From Eunapius fragilis (Eukaryota; Porifera; Demospongiae; Spongillida; Spongillidae), in assembly GCA_963681505.1 (NCBI GenBank), contig OY811990.1, positions 4,628,891-4,692,890 of the forward strand: a DNA stretch of 64,000 bases, in the 5' to 3' direction. Position 1 is the first letter of the stretch; every line of letters begins with the position of its first letter. A program made the translations under genes and the position numbers. Under the pieces are notes generated by a model that had not been told where the DNA came from, ran no database searches, and saw only the letters and a list, made by a program, of their open reading frames with translations. Shown one piece after another: positions 17,969 through 51,729 of the stretch.

Positions 17969-20900
17969 TTAGTCTTGACTCTGCAGTTCTTGAATCCAGG
18001 CCCTAGTTCGCTGACTGGCCTTCTTAGCAGCAGCACATACCACACGCTTGTTGGACTCAGGGACAATGGGCGTCTGATCTTCTTGAGCTACAGGCACATC
18101 TTCACTGGGGACTTCGGGTTTCTCTGTGTCTATCTCCAATGGGTAGAGAAGTTGTAAAGGCCTTGTTAACAGTGTGGATTGTCGATCTCGAGTAGCCACC
18201 CTTACGAGTGCACTGCGAGGCAGACCATCTCGTCCAGGATGAATTTCCTGGATTTGGCCAAGTTTCCAGAACCCACGAGGTAGAGTTTCATCGTGAATTA
18301 TGACAATGTCCCCAAGTGATACAGTAGGGCGAAGATGAGCCTTCTTGGCAGTTGAGTATCGGTGGCACTCCCTGAGCTCATTCAGGTATTCTGTCCTCCA
18401 TCGCCTCCAGAAATGACTCAGTACACTTGCCAGGTGCTTCATTCTTCTCTTTAGCTGACTATCGTTCACCTCAAAATCTTCATCCCCAGGATCACACACG
18501 TACCCCAGGTAGTCAGGTAGATTCAGCAACCGCCGGCCAACAATAAGGTGGGATGGGGTGAGAGGCTCTTCTAAATCGGTAGAGGAAATGTACGATAGCG
18601 GTCGAGAGTTCATCACTGCTTCAATCTCAGTAACAGCAGTGAGTAATTCATCCTGTGAGAGGTTTGCTCGTCCTACCATTTTGTGCAGACAACGCTTGAC
18701 TACACTGTGATCTTCAGTCTCTAGGAGGAGATAAATCACTGCCGCATACGCCCTTGTCGATGCATCACAGAAGCCACAGAGTGTGAAGGATGTCGCAATG
18801 CTTGTGATGCCGCTGAAATAACTTCTAGGGATAGACACAGATAGGATAACGTTGATGCCTGAGATCAGTTGTTTCCACTCTTCCATCAATTCCTCTGGAA
18901 TAATCTTGTCCCAGTCAGTCTTGCATTGACAAAGCTTCTGGAGAAGAACCTTGAAACGGATGATCACTGGCGACAGAAATCCAAGTGGATCATAGAACTT
19001 GCCAATGAGGCTCACCAGGTTCCTCTTTGTGGGACGGAGATCAAGAGTAAGTTGAGCGAGGTTGTTAATGTCAAAGATGAGTTGATCTGACTCAAGATTC
19101 CAAGTAACAACTAGGACCTTATGTTCTCCAACGATTGAACTCTTGGAAACTCCCAGTGTGTCTTCTGAGAACGTTGGTTCGTCTTGCTGTGGCTGTAGTG
19201 AGCTGTCATTCCTTAACGTCTCCCGCAGGTCGATCCACTCTTGCAACCTCCTAGAGTTAGTTAGGACCTTTCTCAGATTGAATCTTCCTTCACCAAAGAC
19301 CCTCTTTGACTCCACATACAGGTTAAATGCCTCCTCTTCAGTTTGTCCACCAGATATTATGTCGTCAACATATGTTGAATGCAGCAGGCGGTGGACCATG
19401 TCTTTGTTGGTGTCCAGATACCTTTCCAGGTGCATCTGTATAGTGGCGTTTAAAAGGAATGGGCTCGCAGAAACACCAAAGACCACACGGGTGAATCGGT
19501 AGATCCTCAGATCGGGTGAATCCTTGAAGACATCATCCACCCAGATGAACCTAAGCACATCGCGGTCTGCTTCGTCCACGGCCACCATTAAGAATGCCTT
19601 CTCTAGATCTGCTATGAGGGCTACTCTGTAAGACCGGAACCGCACCAATAATTCGAAAATGAGTTGGTTGAACTTGGGGCCCTTCATGAGACAATCATTA
19701 AGCGAAGGGTCATTACCACTCCTGGCAGAAGCATCATAAACTATGCGCACCTTTGTAGTAGACTTATCCTGACGCACAACTGCATGGTGAGGCAAGTAGT
19801 GTATTTTGCCCTCAGGTGGTCTATCTGGTGAAATGTTTTCAATGATCCCTTTCTTCAACTGCTCCTTGATCGTGTCATCGTATTCCTTGAGAACCGCAGG
19901 ATCTTGTTTCAGTCGACGGAGCAGGCCTTGAAGTCTGTTTAAGCTGAGTTGATAGTTGTCTGGCAATGAATCGTGGAACTCCCTCCAAGGTAATGGAACC
20001 TTGTACCTGCCGTTCTCAAACTTGACAGCCTTTGTGAAAGTGTCGTAGAGTGTCTTCTCCTTGTCTGGTATTCCAAGGGCTTCCAGCTCCCAAAATGCTC
20101 GAAGTTGATCTTCCAATGTTTGAGGCTCTATTGGACATGAATCAACATGTAGGACATGAGTAACATTCAAGTTCATAGCACACTGTCCAGGATCTTTGTG
20201 GGAGGATGGACCAGACAACACCCAACCGAGTTTCGTGTGTATTGCTACTGGTCCGCTGACTCCTCTGCAGATGCTCCCTGTCACCAACTCCCAATAGTAG
20301 TCAGATCCCACTAGCATATCCACAGCCACGCTCAACCCGGTGCTATGGACATCGGCCAATTCCAGTCCAAGAAGGTGAGGAAACTGATTGGCACACGCAG
20401 ATACCGACTGCCTAACCAAGGGTTCACAAATGGTGGGCACCACATAGACTGAGAGCAGCATAGACGGGTAACCTCTAAGACACAGGCTAATGTCAACAAC
20501 AGGACATACCCTCGTACTGCCTACGGTTGACCCGAACGTTGCTATAGAGAGCGACTGCTCCTTGGAAGCCTTTAGGTTCAGTAGACGTTGGGTTCGTTCA
20601 GTGATGTACGATCTTTGGCTGCCACCATCGAGAATCAAACGCACTCCAAGTGAGACATGCGGGTCATGTGGTTGGTGAACAACTGCCTTGGCTGTCTGCA
20701 GGAGTACGACCTGTTGATTGTGGGAACATAGTGTGCTCGTTGGTTGAGTTGCCTGAACTAATGGTGCGTCTGAGGCTAACCCAGACTGGACAGAGTGAGA
20801 TGAGCTGGATGGTCGGCTTAGATTGGCATCACAGATAGATGTGTGATGCTTCCTCTTGCACTTCTGACATCTAGAGGTGCTCTTGCAATCACGTGATACA

Positions 20901-22039
20901 TGCTTTCGGCGTAGGCAGTTGAAACACTGTCCATTGGTCTTAAGGATTTGCTTGCGATCAGCAGGAGATGTCACAGATGTGCAGCTTGTGGATGGATGAC
21001 TCTGCAGGCAGTAGCAACACTGTGGATTAGGCTTCGCGTTCTGGGAACCAGAGAACAGAGTAGAGACTGTAGACTGTACCCTTTCTTGACCATGTCGTGA
21101 GGATTGAGAATTTGCTCTCTCCCTAGCAGTCAATTCTTCCTCAAATGTTGCTAGCAATGCATCCATGTCCAGATTGGAGTCTGATACTTTTCTGCTCACA
21201 ATGAGTCTCAGTTCTGGTGGCAACTTGGACAATAAGACGGGTGCAAGGAGAGCTCCATAAGAAGCAGATTCAATCCCCAAAGACTTCAAACTGCGGACAT
21301 GAGATTCAGTGTGGTCATACAGTCGACGCAAGTCCTTGAAGTTTCGGTCAGAGGATATAGCATCAATGTTTAACAAAGTATCCATGTGCTTTGAAATGAT
21401 CAACTGCTTGTTGCCAAATCGTTTAGAAAGGATGTCTATGGCCTGTTGGTAGTTGGCTGAAGAGAGTGTCAGTCCATCGATAGAGTCAAGAGCTGTGTCA
21501 TCGAGTAAAGAACGCAGGTAGTTAAACTTGTCGACTTTGCTAATGTCAGGATTCAAATGAATTGCAGACTGATAAGAGTCCCAGAACGTAGTCCACTTTA
21601 ATGGGTCACCGCTGAACCGAGGCAAAGATATTTTGGGTAGTCGCACCTTGGCTCCTCTAGGTGATCCTGGATCCACATCAGGTGAATCTGTTGCAGTTGA
21701 CGGTTCTATAGCGACTGGACTAGCGTTGGTAGGAGAAGAAGCCGGTTGTGAAGAGGATTCTAACAAGGATAAGGCGTTGTACAGTCGTTCCTTGATTTCG
21801 TCCGCCCGAACTATCTCTTCTTCGATGTCGACTTCCGGAACCAGTGACAGAATTTCTTCATCACACTTAGTTAGCGTTTGCAGCTTCTCTTCAAGGCTTC
21901 GCTTCAATTGGGATATCTTGAAATTATCTCGGGGCGTAGCAGAAACGGATTCGCGTGTTTCCCCCAAGATTCGGGTAAGTGAGGCACGATGCCCACCACG
22001 AACCTTCTTCTTTCTCGCCAGTTGTTCTGTTTCGGACAT
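17969..22039 (-). pseudogene. gag-pol frame of the BEL/Pao element (fossil)
   Basis: One open frame of about 1,356 codons. From its start it shows a charged coiled gag region with the LPKISLPRFSGDP motif typical of DUF1759, a CCHC zinc knuckle (CFNCLRRKHVSRDC), a retropepsin-like segment (LILDGGSQRSYI), the Pao-type reverse transcriptase with YVDD, and a basic C-terminal DUF5641-like region. It is a fossil open frame of an incomplete element (about one break). Gag and pol in one frame is normal for BEL/Pao. Confidence 0.93.
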
Positions 22040-43339: not shown

Positions 43340-43435
43340 CAACAGCTGAGAGCTAAGGTGACAACTCCCAAATCATGTCGAGGCGAAGATGAAGCGAGTA
43401 GCGGTCATCTGTACGCTGGTAAGCGGTTGCTATGT

Positions 43436-43527
43436 GCAGAGCAAGTGATGAGGGAATAGGGACAGCTGAGAGCCATCACAAAATGGTGGTCTGTGAAGCT
43501 AATACCTAATGGGAATCTCGCTGATGC
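43436..43527 (+). ncRNA. C/D box snoRNA family B, copy 1 (dual 28S guide)
   Basis: C box GTGATGA, D' CTGA, C' TGTGAAG and D CTGA lie in order over 92 nt. The D' guide ATAGGGACAG and the D guide TGGGAATCTCG are antisense to neighbouring parts of the conserved 28S segment CGAGATTCCCACTGTCCCTA. By the box+5 rule they would methylate the A of CGAGA and the C of CTGTC, which I recall as the human SNORD79 (A3809) and SNORD74 (C3820) sites. This copy has GATGAGGGAA where the others have GATGAGAGAA. Confidence 0.88.
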
Positions 43528-43687
43528 AATAACGTGAAATGTGAACCAGCGCAGAGCGCTTTTGATCGACTTTTGATTTCATAGGACACTTAAAAATCTT
43601 CTCTTTCTCTCCAGAAGTTAAAGTCCTGAAATCTGATCTATACGAAAAGGTATTAAACTATTAGGGTTAGTGTGTGTTTGTGTGTGT

Positions 43688-43771
43688 CATCTGCTATGAT
43701 GAGCTAATCAGTTGACTAGAGTCTCTGAAGTCTCCTATGACTGATAAACCCCTTGGCTGGCTGAGCAGATG
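43688..43771 (+). ncRNA. C/D box snoRNA family A, copy 1
   Basis: An 84-nt unit closed by the 7-bp stem CATCTGC/GCAGATG, with C box ATGATGA, D' CTGA and D CTGA. The guide before D' (GACTAGAGTC) is antisense to the conserved 28S sequence GACTCTAGTC. Box+5 points to the U of GACU, which I recall as yeast Um2421 (snR78) and human U3904 (SNORD52). The guide before D (ACCCCTTGGCTGG) has no target I can name. Confidence 0.87.
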
Positions 43772-43935
43772 TCATTAACTGTATGTATTGTATAATTCAT
43801 AATCCCTTTTTTTAGGTGGGTGCAAACATTACTCCCATCATCAGGGTTTGAGCTGCGTTGTGATGTAAGTCACGGGATGTCTTAGCATGAGGTGGTAGAG
43901 TGTGTGTGTAGCATGTGAGGTGTAGGGAAGTGTGT

Positions 43936-44019
43936 CATCTGCTATGATGAGCTAATCAGTTGACTAGAGTCTCTGAAGTCTCCTATGACTGATAAACCCC
44001 TTGGCTGGCTGAGCAGATG
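43936..44019 (+). ncRNA. C/D box snoRNA family A, copy 2
   Basis: Identical to copy 1 across stem, boxes and both guides. It sits in the intron between exons 43,816-43,864 and 44,075-44,106. Confidence 0.87.
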
Positions 44020-44141
44020 TCATTCTATAACTGCCTGAATGTTGTCATCTTCTTGTACTTTGATATTCATGCAGGCTCCTCGCTTTTTGATATCGAACAC
44101 GAAAGGGTCAGTGTAGAGATCATTATAATTATGTATTAAAA

Positions 44142-44232
44142 TGTGCAGGTGATGAAGCAATGGGATATGGCTGAGGGCGTGGGCCTTGTGAAGTCAAAAT
44201 CCTAATGGGAATCTTGTTGATTCTGATGCACA
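44142..44232 (+). ncRNA. C/D box snoRNA family C, copy 1
   Basis: Closed by TGTGCA/TGCACA, with C box GTGATGA, D' CTGA, C' TGTGAAG and D CTGA. It is similar to family B in layout and in CCTAATGGGAATCT, but the D-side reads CTTGTTGATTCTGA instead of CTCGCTGA, which places the D box 7 nt further on. One extra G (GTGGGCC) distinguishes this copy. Its D' guide (GGGATATGG) has no target I can name. Confidence 0.8.
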
Positions 44233-44551
44233 ATTTTTGTAATTCTTGCTTGTTTGGTGTGTTCTGGTCTTAATGTATCCATATCGTAGGTCATGCAAGT
44301 CCTTGCAGTCATAAGAATTGTCCTGCTTTTCTGTTGACAATCAGCCTTTCTTTAAGAAAGGTAGGCTTTTTTTTTGCGTGGTTGTGAAAAAATGCTTGTG
44401 ATTCAAGCCCTCCACATGAGTAGACCTGGATGACTAAGAATATCTTTGTATGCCCTGTACAGGTTAATATTCGTTCTTGTGGTTTAGGAGCCTCATACCC
44501 TAAGGGCGTCTGAAGATAAGGTGAGCTGTGTATTGTATGAGTTTGGGTAGT

Positions 44552-44635
44552 CATCTGCGGTGATGAGCTAATCAGTTGACTAGAGTCTCTGAAGTCTCCT
44601 ATGACTGATAAACCCCTTGGCTGGCTGAGCAGATG
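44552..44635 (+). ncRNA. C/D box snoRNA family A, copy 3
   Basis: Same 84-nt unit; the C box is GTGATGA rather than ATGATGA. The intron starts at the gtgagc donor near 44,520. Guides are unchanged. Confidence 0.87.
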
Positions 44636-44739
44636 TTATATAACATATTTGAATGTGGTGTGGTTTTGACCACTGGCCTTATCCCTTGTAGGATGAAGTC
44701 TTTCTGAACACATCACCAAAGTAAGTTACCATATATGGT

Positions 44740-44831
44740 GCAGAGCAAGTGATGAGAGAATAGGGACAGCTGAGAGCCATCACAAAATGGTGGTCTGTGA
44801 AGCTAATACCTAATGGGAATCTCGCTGATGC
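44740..44831 (+). ncRNA. C/D box snoRNA family B, copy 2
   Basis: Same boxes and both 28S guides as copy 1. It lies 19 nt after the gtaagt donor at 44,720/44,721. Confidence 0.88.
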
Positions 44832-44951
44832 TTTTATCCCTGCTGTACCAGACTACCAGTATAACTGTTGCCTCCACTTAATGCAGCTGCCTCCAGTATA
44901 GCCATGTTGCTACAAGGAAACCATGTAAGGTAATACACAAAATGGTTATGT

Positions 44952-45035
44952 CATCTGTGATGATGAGCTAATCAGTTGACTAGAGTCTCTGAAGTCTCCT
45001 ATGACTGATAAACCCCTTGGCTGGCTGAGCAGATG
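44952..45035 (+). ncRNA. C/D box snoRNA family A, copy 4
   Basis: Same unit with TGTGATGATGA at the C box, so the last pair of the closing stem is a G-U wobble. Guides are unchanged. Confidence 0.86.
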
Positions 45036-45198
45036 TCATTAACTGTGTGTATTGTGTAATTCATCATCCCTTTTTTAGGTGGGTGCAAACATTACTCCCA
45101 TCATCAGGGTTTGAGCTGCGTTGTGATGTAAGTCACGGGATGTCTTAGCATGAGGTGGTAGAGGGTGTGTGTAGCATGTGAGGTGTAGGGAAGTGTGT

Positions 45199-45282
45199 CA
45201 TCTGCTATGATGAGCTAATCAGTTGACTAGAGTCTCTGAAGTCTCCTATGACTGATAAACCCCTTGGCTGGCTGAGCAGATG
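45199..45282 (+). ncRNA. C/D box snoRNA family A, copy 5
   Basis: Identical to copy 2. It lies 1,263 bp downstream of copy 2 in a near-identical duplicated segment that also carries the flanking exons. Confidence 0.87.
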
Positions 45283-45404
45283 TCATTCTATAACTGCCTG
45301 AATGTTGTCATCTTCTTGTACTTTGATATTCATGCAGGCTCCTCGCTTTTTGATATCGAACACGAAAGGGTCAGTGTAGAGATCATTTTAATTGTGTATT
45401 AAAA

Positions 45405-45494
45405 TGTGCAGGTGATGAAGCAATGGGATATGGCTGAGGGCGTGGCCTTGTGAAGTCAAAATCCTAATGGGAATCTTGTTGATTCTGATGCACA
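45405..45494 (+). ncRNA. C/D box snoRNA family C, copy 2
   Basis: A 90-nt copy, 1,263 bp downstream of C copy 1 in the same duplicated segment. It lacks the extra G of C copy 1. Confidence 0.8.
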
Positions 45495-45825
45495 ATTTTT
45501 GTAATTCTTGCTTGTTTGGTGTGTTCTGGTCTTAATGTATCCATATCGTAGGTCATGCAAGTCCTTGCAGTCATAAGAATTGTCCTGCTTTTCTGTTGAC
45601 AATCTGCCTTTAAAAAAGGTAGGCTTGCTTTTTTTGTTGTTTTTTTGCGAGGTCGTGAAAAGATGCTTGTGATTGAAGTGCTCCACATGAGTAGGCCTGG
45701 GTGACTAAGAATATCTTTGTGCCCTGCCCTGTATAGGTTAATATTCGTTCTTGTGGTTTCGCAGCCTCATACCCTAAGGACGTCTGAAGATAAGGTGAGC
45801 TGTGTATTGTATGAGTTTGGGTAGT

Positions 45826-45909
45826 CATCTGCGGTGATGAGCTAATCAGTTGACTAGAGTCTCTGAAGTCTCCTATGACTGATAAACCCCTTGGCTGGCT
45901 GAGCAGATG
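45826..45909 (+). ncRNA. C/D box snoRNA family A, copy 6
   Basis: Identical to copy 3 in the snoRNA itself (GCGGTGATGA). Its upstream exon is also the counterpart of that before copy 3. Confidence 0.87.
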
Positions 45910-46073
45910 TTATGAACTGTGTGTATTGTGTAATTCATCATCCCTTTTTTTAGGTGGGTGCAATCATTCCTATCATCAAGGCTTGAGCTGCGTTTTGATG
46001 TAAGTCACGGGATGTCTTAGCAGGAGGTGGTTAGAGGGTGTGTGTAGCTTGTGAGGTGTGGAGGGAAGTGTGT

Positions 46074-46157
46074 CATCTGTGGTGATGAGCTAATCAGTTG
46101 ACTAGAGTCTCTGAAGTCTCCTATGACTGATAAACCCCTTGGCTGGCTGAGCAGATG
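46074..46157 (+). ncRNA. C/D box snoRNA family A, copy 7
   Basis: Same 84-nt unit with CATCTGTGGTGATGA at its start, giving a wobble pair at the base of the stem. Guides are unchanged. Confidence 0.86.
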
Positions 46158-46303
46158 TTATGTTTGGTCATCATCATTAAGTGCTTTGTTTGAATGTTTA
46201 ATTTACCATCACACGTTTTGATTTGTAGTGGCCTTGCACACTGACCTCAGGTCCTTCAGGCTGAAGTTGTTGAGGTAACCACAATTGACGTGTTTGTGTG
46301 CCA

Positions 46304-46395
46304 GTGTGCAGGTGATGAAGCAATGGGATATGGCTGAGGGCGTGGCCTTGTGAAGTCAAAATCCTAATGGGAATCTTGTTGATTCTGATGCACAC
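46304..46395 (+). ncRNA. C/D box snoRNA family C, copy 3
   Basis: Closed by the longer stem GTGTGCA/TGCACAC and followed by ACAACGTT. Stem and 3' flank match the copy inside ATP5F1B intron 1 and differ from C copies 1 and 2, so this is the closest relative of that relocated copy. Confidence 0.82.
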
Positions 46396-46678
46396 AACGT
46401 TGTGTTTGTAACATTGAGTGTGATATGTGCTAAATGTTGTGTGGTTCTTTGTTAGATGATGAAGACATGAAAATGTCTCGATCCCCATGGATGGACTATG
46501 GTCCTGTTTTGAGAGGGGGGTTGTGACATCTTAAAGGACATTAGTACTACTTTGGGTACAGTCACACCCACCCCCGTCTTTTGAGGATTCCAGTGCTTAG
46601 GTGACCACTGGCCTTATTCCCTTGAAGGATGATGTCTGTTTCTGAACACATCACCACAAGTAAGTTACCATATATGGT

Positions 46679-46770
46679 GCAGAGCAAGTGATGAGAGAAT
46701 AGGGACAGCTGAGAGCCATCACAAAATGGTGGTCTGTGAAGCTAATACCTAATGGGAATCTCGCTGATGC
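46679..46770 (+). ncRNA. C/D box snoRNA family B, copy 3
   Basis: Identical boxes and guides to B copy 2, and 1,939 bp downstream of it within a second duplicated segment that also carries A copy 8. Confidence 0.88.
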
Positions 46771-46890
46771 TTTTATCCCTGCTGTACCAGACTACCAGTA
46801 TAACTGTTGCCTCCACTTAATGCAGCTGCCTCCAGTATAGCCATGTTGCTACAAGGAAACCATGTAAGGTAATACACAAAATGGTTATGT

Positions 46891-46974
46891 CATCTGCGGT
46901 GATGAGCTAATCAGTTGACTAGAGTCTCTGAAGTCTTCTATGACTGATAAACCCCTTGGCTGGCTGAGCAGATG
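46891..46974 (+). ncRNA. C/D box snoRNA family A, copy 8
   Basis: Same unit with one change, AAGTCTTCTATG in place of AAGTCTCCTATG, between D' and C'. Boxes and guides are intact. Confidence 0.86.
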
Positions 46975-47142
46975 TCATTAACTGTGTGTATTGTGTAATA
47001 ATTCATCATCCCTTTTTAGGTGGGTGCAAACATTACTCCCATCATCAGGGTTTGAGCTGAGTTGTGATGTAAGTCACGGGGTGTCTTAGCAGGAGGTGGT
47101 TAGAGGGTGTGTGTAGCTTGTGAGGTGTGGAGGGAAGTGTGT

Positions 47143-47226
47143 CATCTGCGGTGATGAGCTAATCAGTTGACTAGAGTCTCTGAAGTCTCCTATGACTGAT
47201 AAACCCCTTGGCTGGCTGAGCAGATG
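47143..47226 (+). ncRNA. C/D box snoRNA family A, copy 9
   Basis: An intact 84-nt copy with C box GTGATGA. It is preceded by an exon-like block (acceptor ttttag, GTGGGTGCAAACATTACTCC) that also precedes copies 2 and 5. Confidence 0.87.
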
Positions 47227-47409
47227 TCATTAACTGTGTGTATTGTGTAATTCATAATCCCTTTTTTTAGGTGGGTGCAATCAGTATTCATTCCCCTCAC
47301 CGAGGTCACATTTTGGTGTGAGCCTGCGTTGTGATGTAAGTCACAGAATGTCTTAGCAGGAGGTGGTTAGAGGGTGTGTGTAGCATGTGAGGTGTGGAGA
47401 AAGTGTGTC

Positions 47410-47506
47410 CATCTGTGATGATGAGCTAATCAGTTTACTAAGACTTTGATTTCTCATAAGGTGCGGACAGAAGAGTCTGAAGTCTCCTATGACTGATAAA
47501 CCCCTA
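47410..47506 (+). pseudogene. Decayed family A snoRNA
   Basis: Starts like family A (CATCTGTGATGATGAGCTAATCAG) but the D' guide is changed and about 30 bp are inserted (ACTTTGATTTCTCATAAGGTGCGG). After CTGATAAACCCC the D box and the 3' arm of the closing stem are missing. It is very unlikely to form a stable C/D particle. Confidence 0.8.
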
Positions 47507-47568
47507 TAAAACATGTGGTTTTGACCACTGGCTTTATCCCTGTTTCAAAGTAAGTTACCATATATGGT

Positions 47569-47660
47569 GCAGAGCAAGTGATGAGAGAATAGGGACAGCT
47601 GAGAACCATCACAAAATGGTGGTCTGTGAAGCTAATACCTAATGGGAATCTCGCTGATGC
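47569..47660 (+). ncRNA. C/D box snoRNA family B, copy 4
   Basis: Same boxes and guides; one change (GAGAACCATC for GAGAGCCATC) lies outside the guides. It is in the last recognised intron of the host gene. Confidence 0.88.
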
Positions 47661-47869
47661 TTTTATCCTAGCAGTACCAGACTATGGTTCTTATTGTTAA
47701 TGCTGCTACCCCAAATAGTGCTCACCAACTACAGGAGAACTTGACAACAGACAGTCATTACAAAGGCCCATGGTTTCAAAACATCAAACCCAGAGAAGAA
47801 AAATGCCATGAACGCTTTGTATGCTGCCGTCGTATTAATGTGCGTACAATTTTTGTATTGCTCTGAAAA

Positions 47870-47890: not shown

Positions 47891-48256
47891 CGTCTACTGG
47901 AATATGACGTGTAAATCATTTACCGGATTATGATTAACCACACGTCCCCGGGGGCGGTTGTCTTGCGAAACATTGATCGGTGTTACCGTAGGCATTATAA
48001 AATTTGACACACCCTCTGGGGCCTGTTAAGTTTCCTTACCTCGGGCTAAGAGATGTTTGCAATGGCTTCACAATGAATAATTTTGTTTGCAAGTGAAGCC
48101 AGTGGTTAAAGAGAAGACCCGGACGAGTTGTGCTTCTATACATGTTTGCTCTAGGCGCCATATTATCTGTTGTGTATTTCTTCAGCGGGCACGCCCACTT
48201 TGCCCTCACGCGCATGCGTCTGTGTCTTTCGCGCTCACGTTTTTTCACGGTTGAAA
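47891..48256 (+). promoter_or_regulatory. ATP5F1B promoter and 5' leader region
   Basis: Gap of about 370 bp between the host-gene poly(A) signal and the ATP5F1B start codon. The last 90 bp are GC-rich with CpGs (CACGCGCATGCGTCTG). No TATA box is obvious. The start site is not fixed by sequence. Confidence 0.45.

Positions 48257-51729
<3,473 letters not shown>

What the first reader, a model, noticed from the sequence alone, without database searches (positions are those of the whole stretch)
43436..47660. One snoRNA carries two guides that abut exactly on 28S rRNA
In family B the D guide pairs with CGAGATTCCCA and the D' guide with CTGTCCCTAT. In the conserved 28S segment these two stretches are consecutive with no gap, so one RNA covers about 21 contiguous rRNA bases. 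The predicted sites lie 11 nt apart and equal the sites that in vertebrates, as I recall, need two snoRNAs (SNORD79 and SNORD74), both hosted by GAS5. A fused ancestral guide, or a merger in this lineage, would be informative about snoRNA evolution. Seen: boxes and guides. Known: box+5 rule. Inferred: site identity.
Basis: partly seen in the sequence, partly recalled or inferred. Interest (0 to 1): 0.82.

Follow-up and report, generated by a model that had tools for sequence, protein, structure and literature searches.

The report
Animal snoRNA with two adjoining guides
A small RNA gene in this animal-like genome appears to direct two neighbouring chemical marks on ribosomal RNA at once, the way a known plant RNA does but unlike vertebrates, which use two separate RNAs; it is a new member of a known kind.

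Summary
Four near-identical box C/D snoRNA copies (family B) carry a D' guide (ATAGGGACAG) and a D guide (TGGGAATCTCG). On a eukaryotic 28S these pair with directly adjoining stretches; the box+5 rule gives a C and an A 11 nt apart, equivalent to human C3820 (U74) and A3809 (U79) (literature).

What changes is the novelty. This pair of sites in one RNA is already known in plants: Arabidopsis SnoR44 is assigned to 25S A2327 and C2338 in a RiboMeth-seq map and is one of six snoRNAs whose two guides hit sites 11-18 nt apart (PMC8053127). The window copies match that Rfam family (RF00357, 38.0-45.2 bits; gathering score 48). A second family in the array (A) also has a plant-type pair of sites (SnoR37).

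So this is an animal counterpart of snoR44, not a fusion private to this lineage. Common descent with plants is plausible but not shown: outside boxes and guides, similarity does not exceed shuffles. The species' own 28S, methylation and expression could not be examined.

The parts
43438..43530 (+). family B snoRNA copy 1: C box 43446-43451, D' guide 43456-43465, D' box 43466-43469, C' box 43492-43498, D guide 43510-43520, D box 43521-43524
   Evidence: (RF00357, 38.0 bits)
44742..44834 (+). family B copy 2: C 44750-44755, D' guide 44760-44769, D' box 44770-44773, C' 44796-44802, D guide 44814-44824, D box 44825-44828
   Evidence: (44.6 bits)
46681..46773 (+). family B copy 3: C 46689-46694, D' guide 46699-46708, D' box 46709-46712, C' 46735-46741, D guide 46753-46763, D box 46764-46767
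   Evidence: (44.6 bits)
47571..47663 (+). family B copy 4: C 47579-47584, D' guide 47589-47598, D' box 47599-47602, C' 47625-47631, D guide 47643-47653, D box 47654-47657
   Evidence: (45.2 bits)
43456..43465 (+). D' guide (copy 1), pairs with CTGTCCCTAT; box+5 gives the C equivalent to human 28S C3820
43510..43520 (+). D guide (copy 1), pairs with CGAGATTCCCA; box+5 gives the A equivalent to human 28S A3809
43687..47227 (+). family A snoRNAs, 9 intact copies (starts 43687, 43935, 44551, 44951, 45198, 45825, 46073, 46890, 47142); guides fit the equivalents of human C3848 and U3904
   Evidence: (RF00333, 44.3-50.8 bits)
44142..46394 (+). family C snoRNAs, 3 copies (44142, 45405, 46305), resembling B, with a CTGA 6 nt further from the B-like D guide

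Best explanation
Family B is a functional counterpart, and probably a homologue, of the plant dual-guide box C/D snoRNA snoR44, present as four copies in a multi-snoRNA locus upstream of the ATP synthase beta gene. Shown: boxes, guides, adjoining complementarity to a eukaryotic 28S, sub-threshold family match. Inferred: each copy is cut from an intron, binds the core box C/D proteins and lets fibrillarin methylate two 28S riboses, the A opposite D-guide nucleotide 5 (human A3809) and the C opposite D'-guide nucleotide 5 (human C3820). Because the 5' guide pairs with the 3' rRNA stretch and the 3' guide with the 5' stretch, both could bind at once, each duplex steadying the other.
For: Box and guide layout in 4 of 4 copies; exact adjoining pairing, sites 11 nt apart; full-length alignment to RF00357 covering both guides and the C and D boxes, 45.2 bits for copy 4. 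Arabidopsis A2327 and C2338 both assigned to SnoR44, with the text saying that such paired sites can in principle bind simultaneously (PMC8053127, Table 1 excerpt, section 13). Plant snoR44 is listed opposite both U79 and U74 in the chicken table. Copy 1 shares 92-93 of 94 nt with the other three while its 60-nt flanks are at random level (0.55-0.58; random mean 0.56). Family A sites lie +28 and +84 from the C site, the spacing of Arabidopsis C2366 and U2422, both assigned to SnoR37.
Against: All four copies are below the RF00357 gathering score. Outside boxes and guides, similarity of copy 4 to the RF00357 consensus does not exceed shuffles (0.168 of 20,000), so common descent is not shown. 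The Neurospora table names U79, not snoR44, in what I take to be its plant column for the A site, at odds with the chicken and Arabidopsis tables. Identity among copies 2-4 is weak evidence of constraint: their flanks are also alike (0.68-1.00), so they are recent duplicates. By eye, copy 1 can form less of a terminal stem than the others (sequences). No expression, methylation or own-species 28S data.
Confidence: 0.85

Rival explanations
1. Convergence: plants and this animal each put the two guides into one RNA independently, because adjoining sites help each other bind. (This concerns origin; the mechanism stays as above.)
For: Similarity outside boxes and guides is not above shuffles; Neurospora, and by spacing Dictyostelium, list separate guides; simultaneous binding requires this guide order, so the shared order is weak evidence for descent.
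Against: The same array holds a second plant-type pair, family A, whose sites are 56 nt apart, so adjacency cannot explain it.
Confidence: 0.35
2. Only one of the two guides is active; the other duplex is an accessory pairing that strengthens binding.
For: In Arabidopsis 45 of 104 assigned sites make extra pairs, more than half of these immediately adjacent to the primary pair. The C' box here is TGTGAAG, imperfect by the recalled consensus.
Against: Both Arabidopsis sites are methylated and assigned to SnoR44; both human equivalents are in a list of methylated sites (PMC10657414).
Confidence: 0.12
3. The copies are decayed or silent duplicates and other genes guide these sites in this species.
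For: Tandem duplication is evident, and a tenth family A copy (47409-47512) has an insertion and a lost D guide.
Against: Guides and boxes are intact in 4 of 4 B copies, and copy 1 is alike far beyond its flanks.
Confidence: 0.05

Closest known systems
Plant snoR44 / J54 / Z268 (Rfam RF00357)
   Same: One box C/D snoRNA; guides for the C and A sites, 11 nt apart on the large-subunit rRNA; the consensus aligns over its full length, with both guides in the same order.
   Different: Score below gathering. By eye, the consensus base next to each box does not pair with the rRNA stretch seen in L002, so those duplexes would not abut exactly; the D' box is CTGA here and CAGC-like in the consensus. 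Lies in an animal-like genome.
Vertebrate SNORD74 and SNORD79 (GAS5)
   Same: Same two target nucleotides; also in a multi-snoRNA host.
   Different: Two separate RNAs, both with the guide at the 5' (D') element in the chicken table.
Fungal snR64 / Neurospora CD36 and CD14
   Same: snR64 and CD36 guide the C site, CD14 the A site.
   Different: Separate RNAs, both using D' in Neurospora.
U24
   Same: Dual-guide snoRNA with close 28S sites (human C2338 and C2352), listed with SnoR44 among RNAs hitting sites 11-18 nt apart in Arabidopsis.
   Different: Different rRNA region.

Membership tests
box C/D snoRNA | C (TGATGA) and D (CTGA) boxes near the ends, internal C'/D' | tested here: met
   4 of 4 copies; C' is TGTGAAG
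box C/D snoRNA | terminal stem | tested here: inconclusive
   Short stem possible by eye in copies 2-4, weaker in copy 1; the free folds do not isolate it
box C/D snoRNA | rRNA guide of at least nine base pairs next to D or D' | tested here: met
   11 and 10 bp on L002; the nine-pair yardstick is
snoR44_J54 (RF00357) | score at or above the Rfam gathering score (48 bits) | tested here: not met
   38.0, 44.6, 44.6 and 45.2 bits; hence called a counterpart and probable homologue
snoR44_J54 (RF00357) | both guides, for the C and A sites, in one RNA in the order D' then D | tested here: met
snoR44_J54 (RF00357) | shared sequence beyond boxes and guides | tested here: not met
   copy 4 against the printed consensus, hand-cut segments: total 0.168; per segment 0.10, 1.0, 0.85, 0.028, 0.068
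SNORD74 / SNORD79 | separate RNAs, one per site | tested here: not met
   both guides in one RNA; a genome-wide search for further separate genes was not possible
snoR44_J54 (RF00357) | directs methylation of both sites | not testable with these tools
   needs RiboMeth-seq in this species

The most novel reading that the evidence does not exclude
The last common ancestor of plants and animals already used dual-guide RNAs of the snoR44 and SnoR37 types; this animal keeps both in one locus, while vertebrates, fungi and amoebae each went over to separate single guides.
Probability: 0.35. Interest if true: 0.5.

Novelty: new member of a known kind. Interest (0 to 1): 0.3.

Why it matters
It puts two plant-type dual-guide snoRNAs in an animal-like genome, which makes the direction of change (fused to split, or split to fused) testable by sampling a few deep lineages. 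It changes nothing about how guide RNAs are thought to work.

Tried and rejected
Viral contig scans for the 28S stretch and for a dual-guide pattern found nothing. Rfam at gathering scores found nothing in the window.

A Drosophila lead from memory (guides named for 28S A2634 and C2645, 11 nt apart) could not be confirmed: no paper holds either full name; the eight papers hold the string c2645 but not a2634, look unrelated by title and were not opened; neither number occurs in the main text of PMC13228274 or PMC5932544. The sponge intron snoRNA paper (PMC3412847, passages) has no hit for U74, U79 or snoR44. PMC10912645 was a false lead (snoR442).

Family C target: with up to two G-U pairs, nine stretches of 9 nt matched L002. 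One lies next to the D box (45476-45484 with L002 2015-2023, two G-U pairs, weak); another is the B-like stretch matching 2693-2701, which no longer abuts the CTGA. Nothing matched next to its D' box.

No report of an animal snoR44-type dual guide was seen in the listings (open-licence PMC library; the listings were cut short). Papers: PMC8053127 section 13 whole plus passages; PMC2653536 section 5 whole plus passages; PMC5122169, PMC2780460, PMC6856654, PMC10657414, PMC8817022, PMC8522698, PMC10912645, PMC13228274, PMC5932544 and PMC3412847 passages only; all others listings only.

Full report
Observation. The 43.4-47.7 kb stretch is an array of three box C/D snoRNA families on the + strand: ten A-type copies (one degenerate), four B and three C. 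Family B copies start at 43434, 44738, 46677 and 47567 and agree in 92-94 of 94 positions pairwise. Each has one TGATGA, two CTGA and one TGTGAAG at the same offsets. Copies 2 and 3 also share their flanks (0.92 and 1.00) and copy 4 partly (0.68-0.72), so these are recent duplicates; copy 1 has flanks at random level (0.55-0.58; random mean 0.56) yet 92-93 of 94 identical positions, which points to constraint or to conversion confined to the snoRNA.

Targets. Seven contigs of public MAG records hold the conserved 28S stretch; Rfam matches eukaryotic LSU rRNA in three (L002, L003, L004), with L002 spanning model positions 334-2671 of 3401. On L002 the D guide TGGGAATCTCG pairs with 2691-2701 and the D' guide ATAGGGACAG with 2702-2711, exactly and without a gap. 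In 5 of 7 contigs both guides match in full; in L003 and L004 the run after CTGTCCCT differs and only the D part reaches 10 nt. The contigs were chosen by a pattern holding all of the D target and eight bases of the D' target, so this confirms pairing and register, not that the target exists in the window's species. Of 20,000 dinucleotide shuffles of copy 4, none had both guides matching L002; the stretches tested were chosen because they match.

Sites. Counting five nucleotides up from each box gives L002 A2695 (D) and C2706 (D'), 11 nt apart (my count). Human A3809 and C3820 are in a list of methylated sites (PMC10657414); C3820 is tied to U74 and loses about 34% of its methylation signal in a U74-mutant line (PMC6856654). 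The chicken table gives A3319 with U79 and C3330 with U74, in introns 9 and 1 of one gas5-like host (PMC2653536).

What is already known. The chicken table lists plant snoR44 as functional homologue of both U79 and U74. In Arabidopsis, A2327 and C2338 are both assigned to SnoR44 in a RiboMeth-seq map, and SnoR44 is one of six snoRNAs whose dual guides hit sites 11-18 nt apart (PMC8053127). The window copies align with Rfam RF00357 (snoR44/J54/Z268) over its full length at 38.0-45.2 bits, below the gathering score of 48. That RF00357 is a plant family is from recall plus the plant papers.

Family A. Its D guide pairs with L002 2731-2740 and its D' guide with 2787-2798 (one G-U in the latter); box+5 gives C2734 and U2790, +28 and +84 from the family B C site (my count). 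Arabidopsis C2366 and U2422, +28 and +84 from C2338, are both assigned to SnoR37, and human C3848 and U3904 have the same spacing. So two plant-type pairings lie in one locus. Family A's best Rfam match is RF00333, named snoZ157/R69/R10 (44.3-50.8 bits against 55 for nine copies); I did not resolve how that name relates to SnoR37.

Descent or convergence. With boxes and guides set aside, similarity between copy 4 and the RF00357 consensus is not above shuffles in total (0.168); one of five hand-cut segments stands at 0.028. Neurospora lists CD14 for Am2288 and CD36 for Cm2299, separately, and in what I take to be the plant column names U79 for the first and snoR44 for the second. Dictyostelium lists CD34 for Am2592 and CD26 for Cm2603; that table gives no human or plant counterpart for Am2592, and matching it to the human A site is my inference from the 11-nt spacing. 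Fused and split states are thus both scattered. The second shared pairing, family A, favours descent. Chicken U79 and Neurospora CD14 use D' for the A site where family B uses D, so the split forms are not simple halves.

Setting. ATP synthase beta lies just downstream (PF02874 in the 48170-48715 ORF); a 72-residue fragment at about 50.6 kb scores highest with bovine and similar chains (138 bits, against about 120 for entries that I recall as yeast). This fits an animal; the species was not identified. A GT[AG]AG motif lies within 159 nt upstream of 13 of 17 snoRNA starts, including 4 of 4 B copies (no chance control was run), consistent with one snoRNA per intron of a short-exon host gene; no transcript evidence was available.

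Verdict. Real, correctly read at the level of sites, and an animal counterpart of a known plant dual-guide snoRNA. Modest interest, mostly for the history of guide RNAs.

Noticed in passing
window 43687-47227 (family A): Nine intact copies whose two guides fit the equivalents of human C3848 and U3904; Arabidopsis assigns both positions to one RNA, SnoR37, while U53 (chicken table) and U52 are named for the vertebrate sites.
   Followed up: partly
window 44142-46394 (family C): Three near-identical copies that look like diverged B: the B-like D guide remains but sits 6 nt further from the CTGA, and the D' guide differs; no convincing target in L002.
   Followed up: partly
window 47409-47512: A tenth A-type copy with an insertion and a lost D guide, probably a decayed duplicate.
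   Followed up: no
L001, L005, L006, L007 contig ends: The 28S stretch lies at a contig end and Rfam finds no LSU match at gathering score on these contigs; they could be retroelements inserted in rDNA (recalled idea, untested).
   Followed up: no
window 17969-22039 (-): Long ORF with Pao-type retrotransposon domains (DUF1759, Peptidase_A17, RVT_1, DUF5641).
   Followed up: no
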